DNA of 64,000 nt from Patiria pectinifera. Taxonomy: Eukaryota; Echinodermata; Asteroidea; Valvatida; Asterinidae. The position numbers were made by a program, and so were the translations under genes. The stretch lies in NCBI GenBank assembly GCA_029964075.1, contig CM057144.1, positions 15,957,281 to 16,021,280 of the forward strand, written 5' to 3'. Below are positions 32,701 through 61,000 of this stretch, in pieces. Within the stretch, counting starts at the first letter, position 1; every line of letters begins with the position of its first letter. The notes beneath the pieces are model-generated. The model had not been told where the DNA came from, ran no database searches, and saw only the letters and a program-made list of their open reading frames with translations.

Positions 32701-35700
32701 TTGCAGTGTGAATTGTTCTACAACCACAATGCAATTACAATTCCACTCAACTGACACACTTTCAAACTTGCACTCTCCTCCAAATCTTAAGGCCCTGCAA
32801 CATGTTTACCAATTTCATTGACCAATTTGCATGAATTTCTTTTTGGTTCTTACACTCCAATTGTGATGAACGGAAAGACTGTGATGTAGTAGAAAACACA
32901 GATGAGAAAGATCAGCCACAGATTGGCCGGGAAATCCTTGATGTCACGAATCCGGATAACTTCTCCTGATGGTCCAGACAAAAAACAAAATGAAAGAGTT
33001 ACAGCCGAATTGTTGAACATTATTAGCAATAAACTAGAACCCACAAAGAAGTCTTCAGAAATATATTTGCCCCATAAGGGGAACGCTATGGAGTTTGAGA
33101 TTTCGATAGGAACAAAGGAAAACAAAAGAAGGGAAACAAAGGTCTTCCCCACAAGTATATGTATGTAGGCTGTGTGCTCTGATTTCTGCATATTTTCTTC
33201 AGGTTTCTGCAAGCTTTCAAGTTTAACAAATGCATTATGTGTGCTTTTGCTGAAATCCATATTTCTCAATTATTACATTCAGTCAATATTAATTTTGCAA
33301 CACGGAGAAGACATTTTTGAAAAACACAAACCTGTGCTGGCCTTATTTCTGTTCAAAAGTTTCTCAGCACGGAAATCCAGGATACCGATAATAATCCCGC
33401 AAATGACAGAAAACACACACATCGCAACACCTGCAGCAAATAATAAATACAAATACACAAAAGAATTTATGAAAAGGGTTTACAGTTGAGCATAAATTTG
33501 AAGATAAATCTATTATTTTTTTCACTTCTAATCTAGTTGGGCAACGTTAGACATTTAGACTTCATATACACAAGAACAGTGATGGACACCCACATTCAGA
33601 TTTTGTATGGGTTCTCTGCGCAAGTACCCCCTCAACGGTAAGAAAGGGACAGTAGGGGGAGACCACTGGGAGAGACATTCGATAGCATTGCCGATGACTC
33701 CTAACGCTCAAGCGAACACGCTATTGCTTTGTATACATTCAGCATAAAAGAAGTCCTGCAAACATCGCACTATACGTGCGCAAACCAGAACGTGCACGCG
33801 GTGTGGCCCGTCCACAGGGCTTGGCGAAAGTGGTAAAAAAGAGCCCATATTAGAATTAAGCTAAAGGAAAAGTATTTTGACAAGCCCTAATGAGATTCTT
33901 TCCCCCTTACCAACAAGAAGAGTGTATCCCAGACGTTGGTATGGTAACAAGTCATTGTTGATCGAGTCATAAATTGGCTTGTTGACATTCATGTTCAATG
34001 TGCTGCCCTGTAAAAAAAGAAAATTTAAAATTTAAAAATACAAAGTATATTATGACCCCTGACTTTCTGGCAAATTTGTGTCCTTAAACTCTTAATTGTA
34101 CAGGAAAGGAACATCTTAAGGATGCACTGAAAAACACACTGACAGGTTCTACCATCATTGGTAAGTATTTAATCTCAGAAATAGACTTTTGATAGTCTTG
34201 TGAGGACTTGTGGTGGGCTTGTCAGTTGTGATAGACTTGTGAGGAGTTGTGAGGACTTGTGATAGACTTGTGAGGACGTTTGAAAGACTTGTGAGGACTT
34301 TTGATAGACTTGTGCTTAGGACTTATAACAACTTGTGACAGATTTGTGAGGACTTGTGATAGACTTGCCAGGACTTGAGATTGTGATGACAACACAGCTT
34401 CCTTAAAAAAAATCTGGAAAAAAAGATGTGGCTCAACGCCAATATTGACAAATTGAAAATCAACACAATATTTGGTTTGATCTACTCACAATTCTAGAAA
34501 AGCTGAGCTGTAGCCCAAACACCATGTTCAACTCTTTCTCTTTAAACCATGTGACTGCATACGTATTCTGTGCAACAGCTAGATTCTCACCACCAAGCCT
34601 AGAAAAAAAACACCCAAGCAGCAAAGTTAAATAATTATTGTATTCATAAATCTCATTTGCCAAATTTTGTACTACAGGTTTTTTTGTAACCCGAAATTGG
34701 CATTACGGGTTATTCCTATACAACAGCATTGCCTGGCTCACAAGCGACAGTCGTCCGGTCGTACAGTTGGTCGGTCGGTCAGATTGGTGCAAAGAGGACA
34801 TTGTATGTTGGCCCTCTGAGGACCATCAAAAAGGCTATGGAGTCTAAAAGTGTTTCACGCTAGACCCTCACCCGAAAACAAATCGTCCGGCGACCATGCA
34901 GATCCAACTGTCGAACAGAGCTCCAAGTGCAAAGATCAACTGGTGATAATTACAACAACAAAAAAAATCTTTATGAACTAAGTTTTCACTCCAGAAAACA
35001 CAGAAGACAAAACATTTAACAGGTATCTGTGCAATACACATTATACAAGCTGGTGAACATTATAAGTCAAAATGAGAAATGTACTGATACAGATCATGTA
35101 TGTTGACCTCAAGATCTACAACGTGTAGGCCCTATAACGTCATATTTTTTTGGCATTTATTGTGGCCTGAGTAGGCTTATCCAGTCAAGGGCAATATTTG
35201 GGCTCTGTGAAAGTAAAGAAAGTATACTGAAAATATTGCGAATGGATGACTATAATAAAATGAAAATCACAAATATGAAACTTCTTTTTTTTGGAAAATA
35301 AGATAGGTTTACCTGTCCTGTAAGGACGAAACCACCAAAAACGAGAGTTCCAATTCTGTAGGGAAATAACAACAACACAAATATCAAAGTCTGATTTGGA
35401 TAAGTTAAAAACAAAAATTCCCCCCTCCCCCTCTAAAAAAATCAAATAAATAAATAAATTTAAAAAATTAAATGTACAAAAATAAAAACCCAAAGGTCTG
35501 AACTATACAACAATGTAACTCACGTACATCTGTAACTCTATTTATATGACAATTTATTTATTTCTTTGTTTGGGATGTTTAGTGTTTTCTTACCTGATGC
35601 CAAACACTCTGTCCAACAGAAATCCTCCAAAGAAACAAAGCACTACGTTTGGCCATGAGTAGAGGGAGTATAACAGTTCATAGGTTGATGTATCAATTTG

Positions 35701-38773: not shown

Positions 38774-41700
38774 GTAAGACAGGCAGAGCTAGAAAGGGAA
38801 AGAATGTTACAACCTGACGCTGCTTTTTTTCTTCTTCATGTTTATAGCATCCATTGCGAAAATGATGATAAGACATGAATTTTGGACCGAGAAACATTTC
38901 CAATTTTAATTGTTAGGAAATACTTTGAAGATTTTCTTGACTCTCCGTAGACTTTGTACACAACCCGTGAAGTAGCATCAGGTTGCAAGATACACTTTGT
39001 ACACAACCGCTGAAGTAGCTTCAGGTTGAAACATTCTTTCCCAAGTCAAGACTGCAGTTTTACGACACCAGTAAATTGGCGGAAAGATTTCCATATCTGG
39101 CTATCACTTTTCACCCTGTGCACAAACCGTATGAGACTGGTCTGAAAATTTCTAAGTGTTTTCTCAGTAAAAACTTCAATATTTTCCTTGCTAAATTTGA
39201 CTTTTTACTGACATATTATCACTTTCTCATGGCTGATACTTAAATTCTTAGTGATACCAGTAGAACTTTTCAAAGGAAAAAAAAATTGACTTACCGCACT
39301 AGATAAAAGGTAGGGTTTTAAATTTTCTAGGGATATTTGGGAGTAAAATGACAACGAAAAAATGCAACACAAAAATAGAGATCTATGGGAATCACCACAG
39401 GATGTACCGTGAATGTGCAAGGCGCGTTGAATCGCATGGCACCAACTGTAAACCTTAGTTATTTTTATTAACCCAGACTAGAAACCGATTAATTTCTACT
39501 CGACCTAAATAGTCATATGCCATAGTTTTAGCACCTCTTGGTAATATCTACATGTACCTGTTATATTTTATTTAACAGAGGTTCGAAGTCAGATGGTTCA
39601 GGATTATCCCCATGGGCCATCAAGAAAACCAGGGCCAGAACCTGCAACAATGGCAACGCGGACAACAAACAAGACAAAGTGGAGAAAATGCTTGCAAAAG
39701 AAGCTCAAATTCTCAAGGTAATCTGATTATGTGGCATGAGCCAATCCACATTGTAACTTGTGGCATGCCATGGTCTTGAATAGCAAGTGCAACATTCTGG
39801 TGGTTGCAGGTTCCTGTCCGCGGATTTTTTTCCAAGGAGGGTTGGGGCCAAGTCATGCATAATTCAGTTTTTCCTTTGAATCATTGCAAGACACTTAGGT
39901 TCTTGAACCAGGGACCTTTGTATCCATAGCTCATCCACTAGGCTACTGTGCGTCAGCTCGACGACAACCGTTCTTTTAAATGCTTTAATGTAACTGGTTG
40001 ATCAAATAACAACAATGCTCTTGATATCATTGTTCTGCTCTCATGAATAAACATACTGGCCCTATCAAAACTACTGAATTATTCATGACTTGGCCCCAGC
40101 TGTCCTGGGAATAAAATTAACACTCCCTGAAGTTCCTGTCCAGCCTGGGGATGTGGTGCATGTGTCCTTGGGCAAGTCGCTTTCACTATTATTTCCCAGC
40201 TAGCGGTAAATGGGTACCTGTGAGGGCAGTGATAGACCCTTTTATAGAAAGCATCAAGGCCGGAAATGTGCAGTATGTTACACTACATTGTTGGATCCCT
40301 GCTCATCATGCAAACTATCCCAGGATACAATGCACAGCATTCCTTCACTGCACACTTCCAATAAATCTGTAAAGGGGTCCATGGTTAATGTGACAGATTT
40401 TGCTGCATTGTGCCAAAACGGCAGCATCAGGCTGTGTATTCTCCCCTCCCCCTAGCCCTCCCCCCCCCATCCATCATCCCCAGGAGATGAGATTGTCATT
40501 GCTGTATATAAACCGCCTTGTTACTAATCAATGAATACCAACATGTCTACAAATCTCAAATCAGCAAATTGAGAAAAAAAATTGTTCCATGTATGTTAAT
40601 CTCTCTCATTTCAGATATTTTCAATTTTCAATTTGGCTTTTTGATTATATGACAGGAACTGAAGCATGATAATATTGTCGGGTTCCGAGCTTTCAGCCGG
40701 AATGTCGACGGTAGTCTTTGCTTGTCTATGGAGAATGGGGAGCAATCATTGTGTGACCTGATTGAAAGAAGAGACGAAGAAGACCTGGGTAGGAGGTCAA
40801 TGTTTTCTTAATCAATGGAATAATCTTAAAACCCTCCCCCTCTCTGAACAATTACAGAGAGTTAAAAAATGAAATCCATCATCCCTGCCATGCCTTAATA
40901 ACAGAGTGGGTAGGCACAGCTAGCTTATCAATCACCTACTGTCAAGGCATAATGTACTAAGTTACACTAATGTCACAGCTAATTAATCCTGTGTATTTTT
41001 TTGTTTTATTTGAAAAAGAAAAAGAAAACAATTTATATCTATTCTGCTAGTGCTGTGCATTTTCAAATAATTTGGTATTTGATTATTCCATTACAAGTCC
41101 CTGCAAGTCCATCACAAGTCCTCTGTTCTCAATTCAACTCACAAGCTATTCAAATGAGCTTTGAAAAAGGCATTCCTTTGTTATTACTGCTCATCCAATG
41201 CTACTTGTGACTGGACTTGTGATTTACTTTTGACAGGACTTTTGTGATAATGTACTTTTGACTGGATTTTTGTGATAATTTACTTTTGACTGGACTTGTG
41301 ATTTACTTGTGACTGGACTTGTGATTTACTTTTGACAGGACTTTTGTGATAATGTACTTTTGACTGGACTTGTGATTTACTTTTGACTTTACTTGTGATT
41401 TACGTGTTATGGACTTGTGATTTACTTGTGACTGGACTTGTGATTTACATGTCATGGACTAGACTTCATCCCTGCTCAGGAACTCAGGAAGCTTCCTTAA
41501 CTAACAAAATGTTAACATTTTTGAGCAATTTATTTGCTTTCCTTCAGGCCCCTTCCCTGCTTCCAATATCTACCATGTTGCCCTTGCCCTTGCCAGGGCT
41601 CTTAACTACCTCCACAATGAGAAACATATCCTACACGGGGACCTCAAGAGCGGCAACGTGCTGATTGGCGCTGACTTCCAGTCTGTCAAGCTCTGCGATT

Positions 41701-44685: not shown

Positions 44686-47600
44686 CTGAAAAAGTAAACA
44701 AAAACAAACAATACTAAATAAGACAAGAAGAAACCAAATTTGACATACTTTGTTCCCCTACCTCATACATATTCATTAGCATGAGCCAAATTCCTACTGG
44801 TCCATCACGTGTTGCCGCTAGTTTTGCTATTTACCAAGTGCACATGTGAGGATCTGCGCACAGGATAAATATGTAGATGCAATCATGGAACTATCGCACA
44901 AGGGTAGTGCAGTGCACACGCTAGAACATTGCCCTAGCTACATGAACAGATAGCAGCACATGCATAGCGAGGTTTGGCCAAGATAACGATGCATAACTTG
45001 ATGAACATATGAGGTGTGGTAAAACAAATATAACATGGCATATTTAGGGTCAATGGTCGATTTAAGCACCCCTCAGTTTTGCCTCCTCGAAATTAGTTTG
45101 TTGACTTCCAATACCGAGGGGAGCTAACGTCAACTATCCACCCTCAACCAAGTTATACTTGTATACTAGAGTCCATCACAAGTCCTCGCAAGTCAATCAC
45201 AAGCAATCGAGTCCCAAGTTCAAGTTAGTTAAGAAAAAGGCATTTCTTTGTAACTGTTCATCCCATTTTACGCCTGACTGGACTTGTGAAAGGACTTGTG
45301 CTTTACTTGCAACCGACTCAACTACAGCAATTTATTGAACGATGTGACTTTAAGTTTCACTTTTATTTATATGAGTTCTCCCTGTACCTTGGTCAGCATG
45401 GGAGGACAAGCCGAATTCCAGTTTCTTCATGGCAGTTTCCTCAAGTCCTTCAATGTCCACTAGCGAGTCGCCTGGCGTTTCCGTTGAGTTCAACATATTC
45501 AAGGTGACCTCTGCAGGATTGCACGACACATACCTCAGTTTAAATCCACTGCTAAAGACCAGTTCACACTCGGCCCCAAAGTGAATGCAACTGTGAATTT
45601 GTGATTATTAGTCTAGTATTCCCACTGCGAATTTGCTGTCCAATGGCATGTGCAAAAGAAAAAGTACAGGTTTACTCTGGTGGGACTCGAACCCACAACT
45701 TCCTGCTTACTAGTGCAGAGATATTACCGCTCTACAACCATTGGTTGGTTTGTAACTTGATATAGCATTGTGTATTGAGGGCACGGGTGAGAATATGGGA
45801 AAACATTTTTAATTGTACCTGACTGTTTTTGTTTCTTCAGCGGTGGTTCGTCACTAGAGGGCGCTGTGCTGTTCTCTTCGGGTCGGTTGTCCATTTGCGT
45901 CTTCCTCTCTGCGTCTTGTTTCTGGGCCGCTGCCTGCTCGTGAGCTTTCTTCTTCATTGCTGTCCTGATTTGAGATCTGGAAGGACACAAAAAAATCTTG
46001 AACATTTTGATCAACTTTCCAATTTCAACAAGGGGATCTGATTGGCACGGGCTCCGTGCGCTACCAGAGAGGGTGTTGTAACTCTGGTTTGAATCTCGCC
46101 AGGTGAGGGGCAAACATGTTGATTGGGGTCTCAGTCCCTACAAGACTCTGTGGATTTTCCTCCCGCTTCTAACAGTCATTTCCTTCATCATCACCTACCA
46201 AGTGAATGCGGAATAGCAGCTTGCATGAAGACTTCAATTGACTTACACTGTTCTCGTCTTGATGGTTTCACTGATCTTCTGGAGATTGTCACCAAAAGTC
46301 TTGATGGACGACCTCAGCATTTCAATTTCCTCATCTGTCCATTTGCCACTGTCAAGAGAAAAATTACCAAATAATCAAAAAATGTATATCTTAAAGGGTC
46401 ATCATATAATTTGAATGTTTGAAGACTGATCCGACAGAATCTAATAATATTGTGAAACAATTCAAACTTTACAAGCATACATTGTAAATATAGACCTTTT
46501 GCATGGCGGCCATCTTGGATGTGCAGTGCTTTTTATTTTTTGTTTTACATCTGAAAGTGCATTCCTTGTTATTGAATTACAATTACCACAACCAATGACC
46601 TCCAAGATGGCAGATGTATGCTTATTGTCTATTTATGAATTTCTTCATTTCATCAGTTCTTCCGTGTAATGTTTTAGCACAGCATGGGCTACTCCATCAG
46701 TACCACGTAACTATCACAATTACAGCACGATTGTTGTTGAAAATGGAGAAATAGGTCTAATGCCCAACCTTGTTGGGGATGACTCTGCCATAGGATGTAG
46801 CTGCATAGTCAGCTCCCCCAAGCGACTGAATGCTACTCCAGCAGCGGAGAAAATCTCACCAACCTGCAACCAAAATTTAGGAATGTGAACTGTTTTTGTT
46901 TTTTTCAATTTATAATAATAATCAGCATAAATTTAGAATTCTTACACATTCATAGTCTTTATTCCTGACATGCCTGAGTTGACAATTTAATAAATTAGGT
47001 CACGTCATTCGAACTGCGCATGCTTTATAAACAAGGATAATCAATTTGTGCGAGGTCCAACATTGCGCTTAACACTAGCACTAGCCATTAACAGTAGCAG
47101 AAATGATTCAATATAAATGGTTGTCATTGGTAACTTTCGCTTTTAATATTATTATGTTCACTTTTTTAATAAAGTAGCCAGTCACATAAAATTAAACCTA
47201 CCAAGCTGCCAAGCGATCAGATCAGTGACAATTATCAGAGCGATGTATAACGTACCCTGTCGCTATAGTAATTTACTAATCATGCTAATATTATATAGTT
47301 AGTACATGTCTTATTAATAATGCAAATTGCAATCATGAACTGATGAAGTTTTCACAGTTACAGCTAGTTGGCTAGCCAGCTAGTTGGCTAGCTAGCAATG
47401 GAGGACTGGCACTAGCCTCAAGCATGTGTCAAGTCAAAGTATTTGTTTGTTTGTGGGCCATCATAAATAAACATGATAAATACTACATTATTACTAGACC
47501 CGTGAACGTGGCGTTGTATACAACGGGGTGTTGGGTACTCACCTAGAAATCTAAATTTGCCCGTCCGATTGTTTAGGCTGTGTAATTTCGACGAAATTTG

Positions 47601-49238
47601 CCCATCAGTAAAGACCCATACGAACGTGTAGAAATTAGATTTTAACCTGACCCTGACAAATAACCCCGGACGCGTCAGAGTCGCTTGGACAGATTGACGG
47701 CTGTTTCATGTCGCAACCCCGAAAAAAAAAAAACCCCGCAGACGATTGGCTGCTCGGCTCATCTAGCTCGTGTACAGTACTAGTGTGCGCACACACACGC
47801 GGGCGCACGTGCGACCACGTGCGGTGCGGTGAGAGAGGAAAGGACTTGAAACTTGTCTAAAACGATGTCTGTTTTAGCTGCGACAGTGTCACGCCCCAAC
47901 TATCGCATCGGTCCCAACTATAGTTGGGACTGTCCCAACTATAGTGCGGCAGTTGGGTCGGCCCAACTATAGTTAGGACTGGAGTTGCGCCGGATGCTTC
48001 ATGCTTGATAGATCTTGTTGGATTGAATGTTCCGCGGCGCTGGCACCGTGTATTCGTCGTGCATGCATGCCGCGCCGCAAGGCTGGCCGGTCACGTGGTA
48101 CTGCCTAGTTGGATGAGTTGTCCAGCTGCTGGGTTTTATTATCCAGCAACATTTTGCAAAATTCAAAGATTGCCATGGCCGGCCAACTATAGATGGGCCC
48201 CACCCATAGCATAGCTAATGTCAAAGGTCCCAAGTCGGACATGTAATCAGAGCTGTAGAGAATGTTTTATAGTCGTACATCAATGTAAACTATAGTTGGG
48301 ACTGCCAAATAAAAATATTGCGGTGGCCCAACTACAGATGGTCCCCACCCATAGAACATTTCATTGGTCCCCAGTAAAGTCAGATGTGTATTAGAGTTGT
48401 AGGGAATGTTTTATAATCGTATAACAATGTACACTATAGTTGGGACCGCAAAATAAAAAGATTGGGGTGGCCCAACTGTAGATTCGCCCCATCAATTGCT
48501 AATTTCAGTGGTCCCCAGTAAAGTCAGACGTGTATCAGAGCTGTAGGGAACGTTTTATGGTTGTACATCAACGTAAACTATAGTTGGGACACCGCAAAAT
48601 AAAAAGATCGGAGTGGCCCAACTATAGATGGGCCAGCCCAACAATGGAACTTACAGTTGGGACAGGCCCAACTATAGTTGGGACAGGCCCAACTATAGTT
48701 GGGCCAGCCCAACTGTGGAACTACAGTTGGGACAGGCCCAACTATAGTTGGGACAGGCCCAACTATAGTTGGGACCGATGCGATAGTTGGGGCGTGACAA
48801 CAGTAAACAGCCGTCGAATCATACGAAAATAAAACGCAATGCGCATGCGTCAGTTGGGAGAAAATGGCAGCTAGCAGCAGTAGCGGACGGACTTCATGAA
48901 CCGGGGCCAGAATTTTCCTCAATTTTCGTCAAATGCAAGTTTTGACGTACAAATAGAATTCAAGACAGCTTCATCGTGTTCATATGTGAGTACTTATTAC
49001 ATGGGCAAAATAAAGTCCAGTGTGTGTAACGGAGGGAGTCAGAGGGACACGTTCGCCAGGTTCGAAAATACACAACAGCGTGGCGTAGTTTACAAGCCAC
49101 GTTCACGGTCTACATTATTTTATGAGACGATGAGTACTCCAGCTCCACCTCCCATTTGGCATGTTTAAGAAACTTTGGAATTGAAACAATCTGAGCTTGT
49201 TTTCAAATATCAGAACTCACCTTTGACACAGAGCTCAT
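44621..49238 (-). CDS. BAP18: BAP18-like SANT-domain chromatin complex subunit, complete, 6 exons
   Basis: Minus-strand exons 49238-49221, 46863-46769, 46348-46247, 45976-45819, 45510-45388 and 44685-44621 join in phase to 186 residues (human BAP18/C17orf49, 172 aa). The N-terminus KVGEIFSAAGVAFSRLGELT, with MQLHPMAESSP, is nearly identical to vertebrate BAP18. Residues 39-71 (GKWTDEEIEMLRSSIKTFG onward) start the SANT domain. A basic AMKKKAHEQAAAQKQ segment and PPLKKQKQ follow, then VTLNMLN, LVDIEGLEET and KKLEF, all matching the human C-terminal order. BAP18 is a nuclear component of the MLL1/WDR5 and NURF complexes that helps read active chromatin. Coding exon 1 has only 18 nt. The exon 2 donor (GTTGGG) is weak. 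The last exon, ELNLDANLIAPSSDIESLQR, is an extension relative to human and is the least certain part. Confidence 0.92.
45165..45310 (+). repeat. ACTTGTGA foldback-like repeat in BAP18 intron
   Basis: GAGTCCATCACAAGTCCTCG and AAAAAGGCATTTCTTTG, then GACTGGACTTGTGAAAGGAC, follow the layout of the 41090 copy. Confidence 0.65.
45388..45510 (-). CDS. BAP18: BAP18-like exon 5: VDIEGLEET
   Basis: It encodes VTLNMLNSTETPGDSLVDIE and GLEETAMKKLEFG, aligned with human VTLSALN...VVDIEGLGET..KKLNF. Confidence 0.92.
45665..45760 (-). mobile_element. tRNA-derived SINE head or tRNA relic
   Basis: The minus strand has a perfect T-arm (GTGGG, TTCGAGT loop, CCCAC) with B box GGTTCGAGTCC at 45693-45683 and an upstream GTAGAGCGG. 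The acceptor ends do not pair, so it is not a working tRNA gene. A sister copy lies at 20341-20410. Confidence 0.55.
45819..45976 (-). CDS. BAP18: BAP18-like exon 4: basic and KKQK segment
   Basis: It encodes SQIRTAMKKKAHEQAAAQKQ and ends in PPLKKQKQS. The PP.KKQK motif, a likely nuclear import signal, is shared with human. Confidence 0.92.
46247..46348 (-). CDS. BAP18: BAP18-like exon 3: SANT domain
   Basis: It encodes GKWTDEEIEMLRSSIKTFGD, then NLQKISETIKTRT. The spaced tryptophan and hydrophobic residues match a Myb/SANT repeat. Confidence 0.94.
46490..46632. mobile_element. Small inverted-repeat element in BAP18 intron 2
   Basis: The left end ATAGACCTTTTGCATGG continues into GCGGCCATCTTGGATG. 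The right end, reverse-complemented, reads ATAGACAATAAGCATAC, then CTGCCATCTTGGAGG. The similarity spans about 32 bases with mismatches. A TA duplication is possible. Confidence 0.55.
46769..46863 (-). CDS. BAP18: BAP18-like exon 2: conserved N-terminal helix
   Basis: It encodes VGEIFSAAGVAFSRLGELTM, then QLHPMAESSPT and a split serine. The donor read is GTTGGG; the frame into GKWTDEE supports it. Confidence 0.95.
47887..48799. mobile_element. Composite TIR transposon with internal tandem repeats
   Basis: The left end TGTCACGCCCCAACTATCGC and the right end are inverted copies over about 40 bases. ACAG lies directly on both sides (47883-47886 and 48800-48803), a 4-bp target duplication. Inside are three tandem units of about 145 bp starting near 48181, 48325 and 48469, with a partial fourth at 48615. 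Many copies of the palindrome GTCCCAACTATAGTTGGGAC, some variant, cluster near both ends. No transposase ORF, so it is non-autonomous. The superfamily is unclear; a 4-bp duplication with TGT...ACA ends would suit Ginger- or Academ-like elements. Confidence 0.85.
48181..48614 (+). repeat. Three tandem units of about 145 bp
   Basis: Each unit starts GGCC(C)AACTA(T/C)AGAT, continues through a GGTCCC(C)AGTAA-type block and AATGTTTTATA, and ends AACTATAGTTGGGAC plus AAATAAAA. Units begin near 48181, 48325 and 48469 with moderate divergence. Confidence 0.8.
49221..49238 (-). CDS. BAP18: BAP18-like exon 1 (18 coding nt)
   Basis: It encodes MSSVSK and then donor GTGAGT. Human starts MTSASTK, so this tiny exon is the expected start for VGEIF. 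Confidence 0.85.
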
Positions 49239-58037: not shown

Positions 58038-61000
58038 GTAAACTTTCGTTTAGAGCATGAACATTCACACAACTGTACCTTTGAAAATGTAATTACTGCA
58101 CAAAGACAGCTTACAAAAAGTATTGTGCAGTCCTTCTGATTTGAGAATCACAGGCATGTGGAAAAAGGCACGCCTGGATTTTTCTAGGCGTGTGATTTTT
58201 CTATTCGTGTGATTTTTCTATTCGTGTGATTTTTCTAGGCGTGTAATTTATGAAGGCGTGTGATTTTTCTAGGCTTGTGGTTTTTCTAGGCGTGTGATTC
58301 TGTGGTCCAAGCTGGGACTGAACAATCTGGTATTTTTCAAGAGCTCACAGAAGTATAACTATGCCGTAAATGTATGCCGAGGTGTGTGGTACAGCGGGAT
58401 TCAGGCGTGCGATTATTTCCACTTCTCAGGAAGCATTCAGGAGTGTGATGGTGTGGGGGTGTAAATTCTTGTTTCATAGTTGTGGGGACGTACACTCGTC
58501 CCCACGAGGTATTTGTGGGGACCGAAAATGCTATGGGGACAGCAGAAAGTCCCCATAACTCGGTCCTAATTTCCCTAACAATAAAAAACTTCCCCATAAC
58601 GCGGTGTATGCCTACCTGCGAACGCACACCTCAAATCAGAAGGACTGTTGTGACAAGTGATCTGCTTTACACACCTGTTGTAAACAACTGTTTGCCCAAA
58701 ATAATCCCATTGTTCTTAATCTGGTTTATATTTGTAATGTTGCTCTTTCCACAGCGGACAACGGAGCCATGACCCACGCTACAGCGCGGAACATCAAGCT
58801 AGTGGTAGTCGGCGATGGTGCCGTGGGCAAGACCTGTATGCTCTGGTCCTACACACATAATGCCTTCCCTAAAGAATATGTACCCACTGTGTAAGTAGCT
58901 CCCCAGTGCAGACTGGTGTACCAGTGTTAACTCGTCTGTGGGGTCGTTCTGAACAACTCCAACAGTTGATCTTTCGAGGCATTGCATCAGAGGCTGTTTC
59001 AAACTGTTTCAAACACATAACATGATTCAAATTCTAGAGATTGAATTTGTTTGTTTTTTCCCGTCAGGTTTGATAATTTCTCACAACTGATCAAAGTGGA
59101 CGGTGTGTCAGTCAACTTGGGATTGTGGGACACAGCCGGGCAGGAGGATTACGACAGACTCCGACCGTTGTCTTACCCACAGGTAAATCAAATAATCAAG
59201 TCAGTTCAGTGCCAATACGGCTCATCAGGCCGACATTTATTTCCAGCTTCCGAGGTATCAAAAAACTTAGAAAATTTCTTTTCCACCCTTGAGGGGATGC
59301 CAGTCCACCACAGGTACGCTCGCTTCCTAGCCAATGCTGGTACTTTCACTCCTAGGTTTGAATAGACAGTTTTGGATAAAGCAGCTTGTTCAGGGACTCA
59401 ATATAATGCCAATAGCAGGTTTTGCAGGTCAATCCCCACCTAATTCTGGTATCCATCTGTACACCGTGGTGGGAGAGAAGCAAGTTGGGGTAAAATGACT
59501 TGCCCAAGGACAACATTTGGGAAGCATTGGGATTCAAACCCCTGACTCTCTAATAATAGGAATTTTTTCTGAATTCTGCAACAAATACCCAATGCAGCGG
59601 GCCTATTGAGGATGAACTTTTCCACAATTTTGTTTTGACTTTTTCGTGTGTATTTTGTTCTCAACCCACAGACCGATATATTCCTAGTTGCCTATAGTGT
59701 AGAGGGGCCCACCTCATATGCCAACGTTCAGTCTAAATGGATCCCTGAGTTGCAGCACCATGCTGCTGGAGTGCCTTTCATTCTCGTGGGTGAGTTATTT
59801 ATTTGTTTTTGCTGGTCCCAGAGGGCCAGCTAGAGTCCTGCTTGCACCTGACTCAATGACTGACTGACTGTGTTGTGTTCACATTTCAGTTTTGGCATGG
59901 CGCCTCTGCATCTGTGTATAGACCATTGTCATGTTGCCAAGCTTGATTTTTCCCCATTCCAATCAACATAACCAAGGCGAGGCTGGAAGGGAAAATAGTC
60001 TGGTTCCTTTTTGCACAAAAAACATCATTTAGTACTGTTATTGAATACAGGGAACATGACTGAAATGGTGGCAGCATGATAAAGGTCTGTTGTTGCTGAG
60101 GAAACCAAGTCACAATTTTATGCCACGAAAAGCTCAAAATGCGCAAAACACTTAGGAAAAATTCACTCTGAAGAGCTTCAAATTGCAATCAGACAAGTCT
60201 GATACATTGGAAACAGAGGCTTATAGAATTACAAAGTTGGAAAAGAAATTTTGACAGAAAAGACGGAAATTCATACCTACGGACCCTGTGCAATCAGCTT
60301 CAACATGCATTTCCCATGTCACTTTTGCATATCACGTATAAGAAGAAAGCATGAAGTGATGACGTCACGCTAGAAATTGAAAGGTATACATGATATGGCG
60401 TGAATTTAAAATCTGCCAAAACACTGTCTATTGGCTTTGAATCTGTTCCCACTTTACAGGAACGAAGATTGACCTGCGAGAAGACAAGGAAACGATGGCC
60501 AAGCTGGCGCAGCAAGGCAAGGCTCCCTTCAAGAAGGAGCAGGGGGAGAAGTTTGCAGCCAAGATGGGCGCCGTCAAGTACATGGAGTGCTCGGCGCTGA
60601 CGCAGAGGGGGCTGAAGCTGGTAGGGGCAGGTTCTAATTATCGGCTATTATATGGCTGACAGTTACACACATGACTATGGACAGCGGCTGCAGCTGCCTC
60701 CATAGGTGCGTGTGTAATTGTCAGCCGCAGCCAACTAATTCAGCAAGAGCGGGTAGTTTGTCATCATGACAAGAAACACAATATGATTACCCGGTCAAGA
60801 CTGGATAATATTTTATTGATAGAAAAATAGCGATTTAAGAATAAAATCTGGGGTTTTTTCCAAGGTTGAAAAATTGCACAGACAGTAGATGGGAAATTCC
60901 TTACAGGGACAGCTTAATTCAAATCAGAACTACTTGAAAAATATTTCAGTGATATTTCCACCATGAACCCATTAGAAATAAGATAAAAGTGCGCTGATTT

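What the first reader, a model, noticed from the sequence alone, without database searches (positions are those of the whole stretch)
47887..48799. Composite transposon built from a 20-bp palindrome and 145-bp tandem units
Seen directly: inverted ends of about 40 bp, a 4-bp ACAG target duplication, three tandem units plus a partial fourth, and many copies of GTCCCAACTATAGTTGGGAC. The palindrome is present in the ends and also closes each tandem unit, so ends and interior appear to be made from the same module. I do not know a named family with this plan. It could show how a foldback element seeds satellite DNA, or reflect repeated binding sites for its transposase.
Basis: partly seen in the sequence, partly recalled or inferred. 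Interest (0 to 1): 0.75.

Follow-up and report, generated by a model that had tools for sequence, protein, structure and literature searches.

The report
Young miniature transposon with tandem core
This is one of roughly two hundred recent copies of a small gene-less jumping element in what looks like an animal genome; its ends and its short internal repeats share one palindromic DNA motif, a layout already known from other miniature transposons.

Summary
47887-48799 is a complete 913-bp insertion with 59-bp inverted ends (98%), a 4-bp ACAG duplication, and three 144-bp tandem units plus a partial fourth. It is not a local expansion: the terminal 25-mer occurs 407 times in the genome (<=2 mismatches; backwards control 0). 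The 241 exact ends form 92 facing pairs, median 901.5 bp. Of 60 distinct insertions read, 40 have an exact 4-bp duplication, none 3, 6 or 8 bp. The target is a sharp palindrome, TR-N4-YA (29 of 40 exact sites; 2.2% background). A related empty site of the window insertion has ACAG once. Forty aligned copies lie about 1% from their consensus; units within the consensus differ by about 17%, so the array is older than the burst and travels as a block. No satellite array showed among the 100 listed of 312 unit-marker hits. Lengths step by about one unit. No copy read encodes a transposase; three long ones are the same element split by other inserts. TGTCA ends and 4-bp duplications fit Ginger integrase-type transposases, unproven. 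The plan (miniature element, tandem core, shared motif) has precedents: Tetris, Galileo, pearl/DTC84. Ordinary kind, new family.

The parts
47883..47886 (.). left target-site duplication ACAG
   Evidence: single ACAG in the related empty site
47887..47950 (+). left terminal inverted repeat (TGTCACGCCCCAACTATCGCATCGG + palindrome)
   Evidence: 407 genome ends with <=2 mismatches
47911..47930 (.). exact 20-bp palindrome GTCCCAACTATAGTTGGGAC
47980..48182 (+). left-hand spacer, non-coding; an 18-nt anchor from it is found (<=4 errors) in 57 of 60 copies read
48183..48634 (+). tandem core: three 144-bp units plus a partial fourth
48615..48773 (+). right subterminal array of the palindrome (21/49/70-bp periods)
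48736..48799 (-). right terminal inverted repeat
48800..48803 (.). right target-site duplication ACAG

Best explanation
A recently amplified, gene-less (non-autonomous) DNA transposon family. Shown: defined inverted ends, 4-bp target duplications, precise insertion into another repeat, a palindromic target TR-N4-YA, and 407 dispersed ends, about 200 copies. Inferred: a transposase made elsewhere recognises the TGTCACG ends and moves the element, probably by cut-and-paste, with a 4-bp stagger, and is most likely an integrase-type (Ginger-like) DDE enzyme. Inferred more weakly: the palindromes near the ends and in the units are dimeric binding sites for that transposase or for a host factor; and the tandem core was assembled before the burst, then copied as a block, with occasional gain or loss of whole units by slippage or unequal exchange.
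For: 407 ends, control 0. 241 exact ends, 92 convergent pairs, median 901.5 bp. TSD of 60 distinct insertions: 4 bp exact in 40, one mismatch in 11, 5 bp in 1, 3/6/8 bp in 0. TR-N4-YA complete at 29 of 40 exact sites, background 1394 of 64000 window positions; the single 5-bp case (L048) keeps TG before and CA after it. Related empty site of the window insertion in L066 6750-7008, 84% over 264 columns, with ACAG once. Median non-CpG distance from consensus 0.95% in 40 aligned copies against about 17% between units. Length classes near 600/750/900/1050. Ginger termini TGTNR, 4-bp TSD, TIRs 40-270 bp (PMC2836005 passages).
Against: No transposase-bearing partner was found. The target differs from both published Ginger preferences (CCGG/CCGT; RTATAY): TATA is the duplication in only 2 of 40, CCGG, CCGT or ACGG in 0. 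Motif conservation is weak: ratio 0.73 against the rest outside the terminal 60 nt, with 42 of 782 circular shifts as low. 9 of 60 insertions have two or more mismatches in the 4 bp, as decay or rearrangement would give; one of the nine is the 5-bp case L048. The 40 aligned copies were taken from copies found by exact ends and kept if 820-1060 bp long (L007 and L048 left out), so the age is biased towards young; single copies reach 3.6%.
Confidence: 0.6

Rival explanations
1. Same kind of non-autonomous element, but mobilised by a transposase of some other or undescribed superfamily with a 4-bp stagger.
For: No partner found; TR-N4-YA matches neither published Ginger target.
Against: TGT...ACA ends with 4-bp TSDs and 59-bp TIRs are the published Ginger combination; the R before and Y after the TSD match the outer positions of the Ginger2 target.
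Confidence: 0.33
2. A derivative of an LTR retroelement (solo or miniature LTR) inserted by a retroelement integrase.
For: TG...CA ends and a 4-bp TSD also fit LTRs; the genome holds many rve integrase matches (1962 candidates, 150 scored).
Against: A 59-bp inverted repeat at the ends; no copy read shows these sequences as two direct repeats around coding DNA.
Confidence: 0.05
3. A locally expanded inverted satellite array, not a transposon.
For: Repeats and palindromes are dense.
Against: Dispersed copies with the same ends, TSDs and a related empty site.
Confidence: 0.01
4. A Helentron-type non-autonomous element (HINE, like pearl) with satellite-like core.
For: Tandem core between two modules and palindromes.
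Against: True terminal inverted repeats and 4-bp TSDs; for Cg_HINE no TSD and preference for TT are reported (here).
Confidence: 0.01

Closest known systems
Tetris (Drosophila virilis foldback element with TIR-220 tandem repeats; PMC4079207, passages seen)
   Same: Non-autonomous; tandem repeats share sequence with the terminal domain; extra transposase-binding sites suggested; no autonomous copy found.
   Different: Tetris repeats lie inside the inverted arms, TSD is 8-10 bp (authors suggest Mutator), and its repeats also form kb-size arrays; here the units lie in the middle in one orientation, TSD is 4 bp, and no arrays were seen among the hits listed.
Galileo (P superfamily, Drosophila; PMC3688188, abstract seen)
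   Same: Repeated transposase-binding sites in internally repetitive ends.
   Different: Binding was shown there by footprinting; here it is inferred. P superfamily.
pearl / DTC84 / Cg_HINE of bivalves (PMC7492417 and PMC5139131, passages seen)
   Same: Short non-autonomous elements with a central array of a few ~160-bp repeats; DTC84 has a conserved palindrome near the repeat junction.
   Different: pearl and Cg_HINE are classed as Helentrons; Cg_HINE has subterminal inverted repeats and no TSD. Here true TIRs and 4-bp TSDs are present.
Ginger1 / Ginger2 DNA transposons (PMC2836005, passages seen)
   Same: TGTNR ends, 4-bp TSD, TIRs of 40-270 bp, R/Y just outside the TSD as in RTATAY.
   Different: No integrase gene found here; TSD core not CCGG or TATA; the passages I saw name no Ginger miniature element with a tandem core.

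Membership tests
TIR DNA transposon, non-autonomous (MITE-like) | terminal inverted repeats shared by dispersed copies | tested here: met
TIR DNA transposon, non-autonomous (MITE-like) | fixed-length target-site duplication | tested here: met
   4 bp exact in 40 of 60, 0 with 3, 6 or 8 bp, 1 with 5 bp
TIR DNA transposon, non-autonomous (MITE-like) | empty site with one copy of the target | tested here: met
   paralogous empty site of the window insertion, L066 6750-7008; no orthologous site could be tested
TIR DNA transposon, non-autonomous (MITE-like) | no transposase gene inside | tested here: met
   window copy: no ORF of 150 aa or more; stop-to-stop frames touching it reach at most 116 aa. 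Longer frames in other loci lie in inserts or outside the ends
Ginger1/Ginger2 | TGTNR termini | tested here: met
   TGTCA at both ends of the window copy; copies were sought by this end, so their number is no independent test (definition)
Ginger1/Ginger2 | 4-bp (or 4-5 bp) TSD | tested here: met
   definition
Ginger1 | TSD CCGG or CCGT/ACGG | tested here: not met
   0 of 40 exact TSDs
Ginger2 | target RTATAY | tested here: not met
   R and Y flanks hold at 38 of 40, but TATA core at only 2 of 40
Ginger1/Ginger2 | Gypsy-integrase-like transposase on a partner with the same ends | tested here: inconclusive
   none among copies read; 166 of 407 ends (1-2 mismatches) were not sought out and 14 of 57 single exact ends were not read
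Foldback element | long inverted arms made of tandem repeats | tested here: not met
   arms about 59-71 bp; the 144-bp units are direct repeats in the middle
Helentron HINE (pearl, Cg_HINE) | no TSD, insertion at TT | tested here: not met
   definition

The most novel reading that the evidence does not exclude
The family is driven by an undescribed integrase-type transposase lineage with an unusual 8-bp palindromic target, TR-N4-YA, and the repeated palindrome in the ends and core is its dimeric binding site, so the tandem core is a binding platform that lets a gene-less element out-compete its own autonomous parent.
Probability: 0.2. Interest if true: 0.5.

Novelty: new member of a known kind. 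Interest (0 to 1): 0.3.

Why it matters
It is a clean natural case in which a miniature transposon carries a short satellite-like array that travels as a block: units differ by about 17% from each other, aligned copies by about 1% from their consensus. That separates 'a transposon spreads a ready-made array' from 'a transposon seeds satellite growth'; only the first was seen here, on a partial listing. The sharp TR-N4-YA target gives a fingerprint for finding the missing transposase.

Tried and rejected
Satellite seeding: not seen in what was listed (312 marker hits, 100 listed, one pair within 200 bp; the listed hits are exact matches of the middle-unit type, so arrays of other unit types are not excluded).

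Autonomous partner among long copies: pairs of 11.2 kb (C8), 16.4 kb (C11) and 7.9 kb (C13) keep exact 4-bp TSDs but are the usual element split by other inserts. The C8 insert has frames matching Helicase_C and DUF6589; the C11 insert has a frame with matches to Transposase_21 and DUF4218 below Pfam's cut-offs; the C13 insert was not identified. Single ends: of 57 unpaired exact ends, 20 were read with 8 kb, 20 with 600 bp, 3 lie in other fetched loci (L007, L027, L031), and 14 were not read. L085 proved split by an insert with 41-bp inverted ends; L072 keeps only 26 bp of the end, with no second end within 6.1 kb. The 166 ends with 1-2 mismatches were not sought out; some were read as partners of exact ends.

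Other end variants: TGTCACGCCCCAACTA followed by a base other than T gave 3 hits, one already known (second end of L052), two unread; the 25-mer followed by a base other than T gave 0. The rve family search did not help: 1962 candidates, 150 scored, not sorted into Gypsy and Ginger. Viral contigs: 0. Papers: three sequence strings from the element gave 3 papers, whose titles are unrelated; listing only.

TIR conservation was not used as evidence, because copies were found by exact TIR match. The stable single-strand fold (z -16) follows from the inverted ends and palindromes and was not taken as function.

Full report
What is there. At 47887-48799 is a 913-bp element: inverted ends of 59 nt at 98% (64 nt at 95%), ACAG on both sides, a 203-bp spacer, a core of 144-bp direct repeats from 48183 to 48634, and a right subterminal array of the palindromic motif. 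The exact 20-mer occurs once; with up to 3 mismatches there are seven hits including it, 0 expected. The full units hold only a degenerate part of the motif.

It is a dispersed family. The terminal 25-mer has 202 forward and 205 reverse matches with up to two mismatches; the pattern read backwards has none. Splitting by the flanking bases lists 241 exact ends (46+63+42+90). They form 92 convergent pairs, median 901.5 bp, and 57 singles. Of the 92 pairs, 64 are 850-960 bp, 4 are 500-640, 7 are 690-790, 2 are 1000-1100, and 15 lie between or above these. That suggests steps of one unit and fits marker counts: 43 of 60 copies show three units by the larger of two markers. At least two insertions are in the assembly twice (L002/L003, L049/L050), so 407 ends slightly overstates the number of sites.

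Insertion. I read 60 distinct insertions: 62 rows, 2 duplicates dropped. Forty have an exact 4-bp duplication, 11 have one mismatch and 9 have two or more. One of these nine (L048) has an exact 5-bp duplication; none of the 60 has 3, 6 or 8 bp. At the 40 exact sites the base before the duplication is R in 40 and the base after is Y in 38; T stands at -2 in 35 and A at +2 in 35. The full TR-N4-YA occurs at 29 of 40, against 1394 of 64000 window positions; the window insertion itself is one of the 11 exceptions (CG-ACAG-TA). Joining flanks in a script found related uninterrupted sequence for several insertions. For the window element, L066 6750-7008 matches over 264 columns at 84%, with ACAG once. 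So the duplication is a real TSD and the insertion was precise, into another repeat.

Age and history of the core. Forty near-full-length copies (820-1060 bp, L007 and L048 left out) were aligned. Median distance from their consensus is 0.95% outside CpG, range 0.2-3.6%; the copies were found by exact ends, which favours young ones. Within the consensus the 144-bp units match at 83%. The array therefore predates the burst and is carried as a block. A marker for the units has 312 hits; among the 100 listed, all exact and of the middle-unit type, only two lie within 200 bp of each other, in a four-unit copy. No long satellite array appears in that list; 212 hits were not listed.

Is the motif a binding site? 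Outside the terminal 60 nt, palindrome positions vary at 0.73 times the rate of the rest, and 42 of 782 circular shifts of the mask are as low. That is weak. The idea rests mainly on analogy with Galileo, where footprinting showed repeated transposase sites (PMC3688188, abstract), and Tetris (PMC4079207, passages).

Which transposase? Published Ginger elements have TGTNR ends, TIRs of about 40-270 bp and 4-bp TSDs (PMC2836005, passages); a later paper gives 4 bp for Ginger1 and 4 or 5 bp for Ginger2 (PMC10045372, passages). This family fits on all three. It fails the published target cores: CCGG, CCGT or ACGG 0 of 40, TATA 2 of 40. No copy read carries a transposase of its own. The three longest exact pairs, with exact TSDs CAGC, ATAG and TAAC (the last is outside the 60), are the usual element split by other inserts. 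I therefore say it works like a Ginger-mobilised miniature element, and I do not file it as Ginger.

Known or new. Miniature elements with a short tandem core, and ends sharing motifs with repeats, are known (Tetris; pearl, DTC84, Cg_HINE: PMC7492417 and PMC5139131, passages). This is a new family of that kind with a different TSD and a sharp target. A literature search with three sequence strings found three papers with unrelated titles (listing only). Word searches showed no title or abstract start that I recognised as this family: 20 of 31 papers listed, 7 of 7, 10 of 54, 12 of 52, 12 of 484. Repbase was not available to me.

Noticed in passing
window 47497-49112: The element sits inside another dispersed repeat whose ends look like inverted repeats by eye (TAGACCCGTGAACGTGGC ... 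GCCACGTTCACGGTCTA); related sequence occurs beside or around other insertions (L013, L046, L054, L066).
   Followed up: partly
L009-L010 (C8 insert): An insert of about 10 kb splits one copy, with about 14 bp of the element on both sides of it; its frames match Helicase_C and DUF6589, and one looks PHD-like by eye but has no Pfam match. Possibly AcademH-like, from recall only.
   Followed up: partly
L012:2013-4274: A 754-aa open frame with sub-cut-off matches to Transposase_21 (tnp2) and DUF4218 lies in a 15.5-kb insert that splits another copy, with about 3 bp of overlap; perhaps CACTA-like.
   Followed up: partly
L052:201-367 and L088: Very short derivatives (167 bp, and about 238 bp) keep only ends and palindromes, suggesting that core and spacer may not be needed to move; L052's flanks ACAC/ACTC differ by one base.
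   Followed up: partly
L026, L027, L028, L043, L081: These loci share one repeat family around the insertions; L028 and L043 have the same target GGGC in the same flank.
   Followed up: no
window 41197-41460, 34197-34377, 58177-58299: Other short tandem arrays, with no resemblance to this element that I noticed.
   Followed up: no
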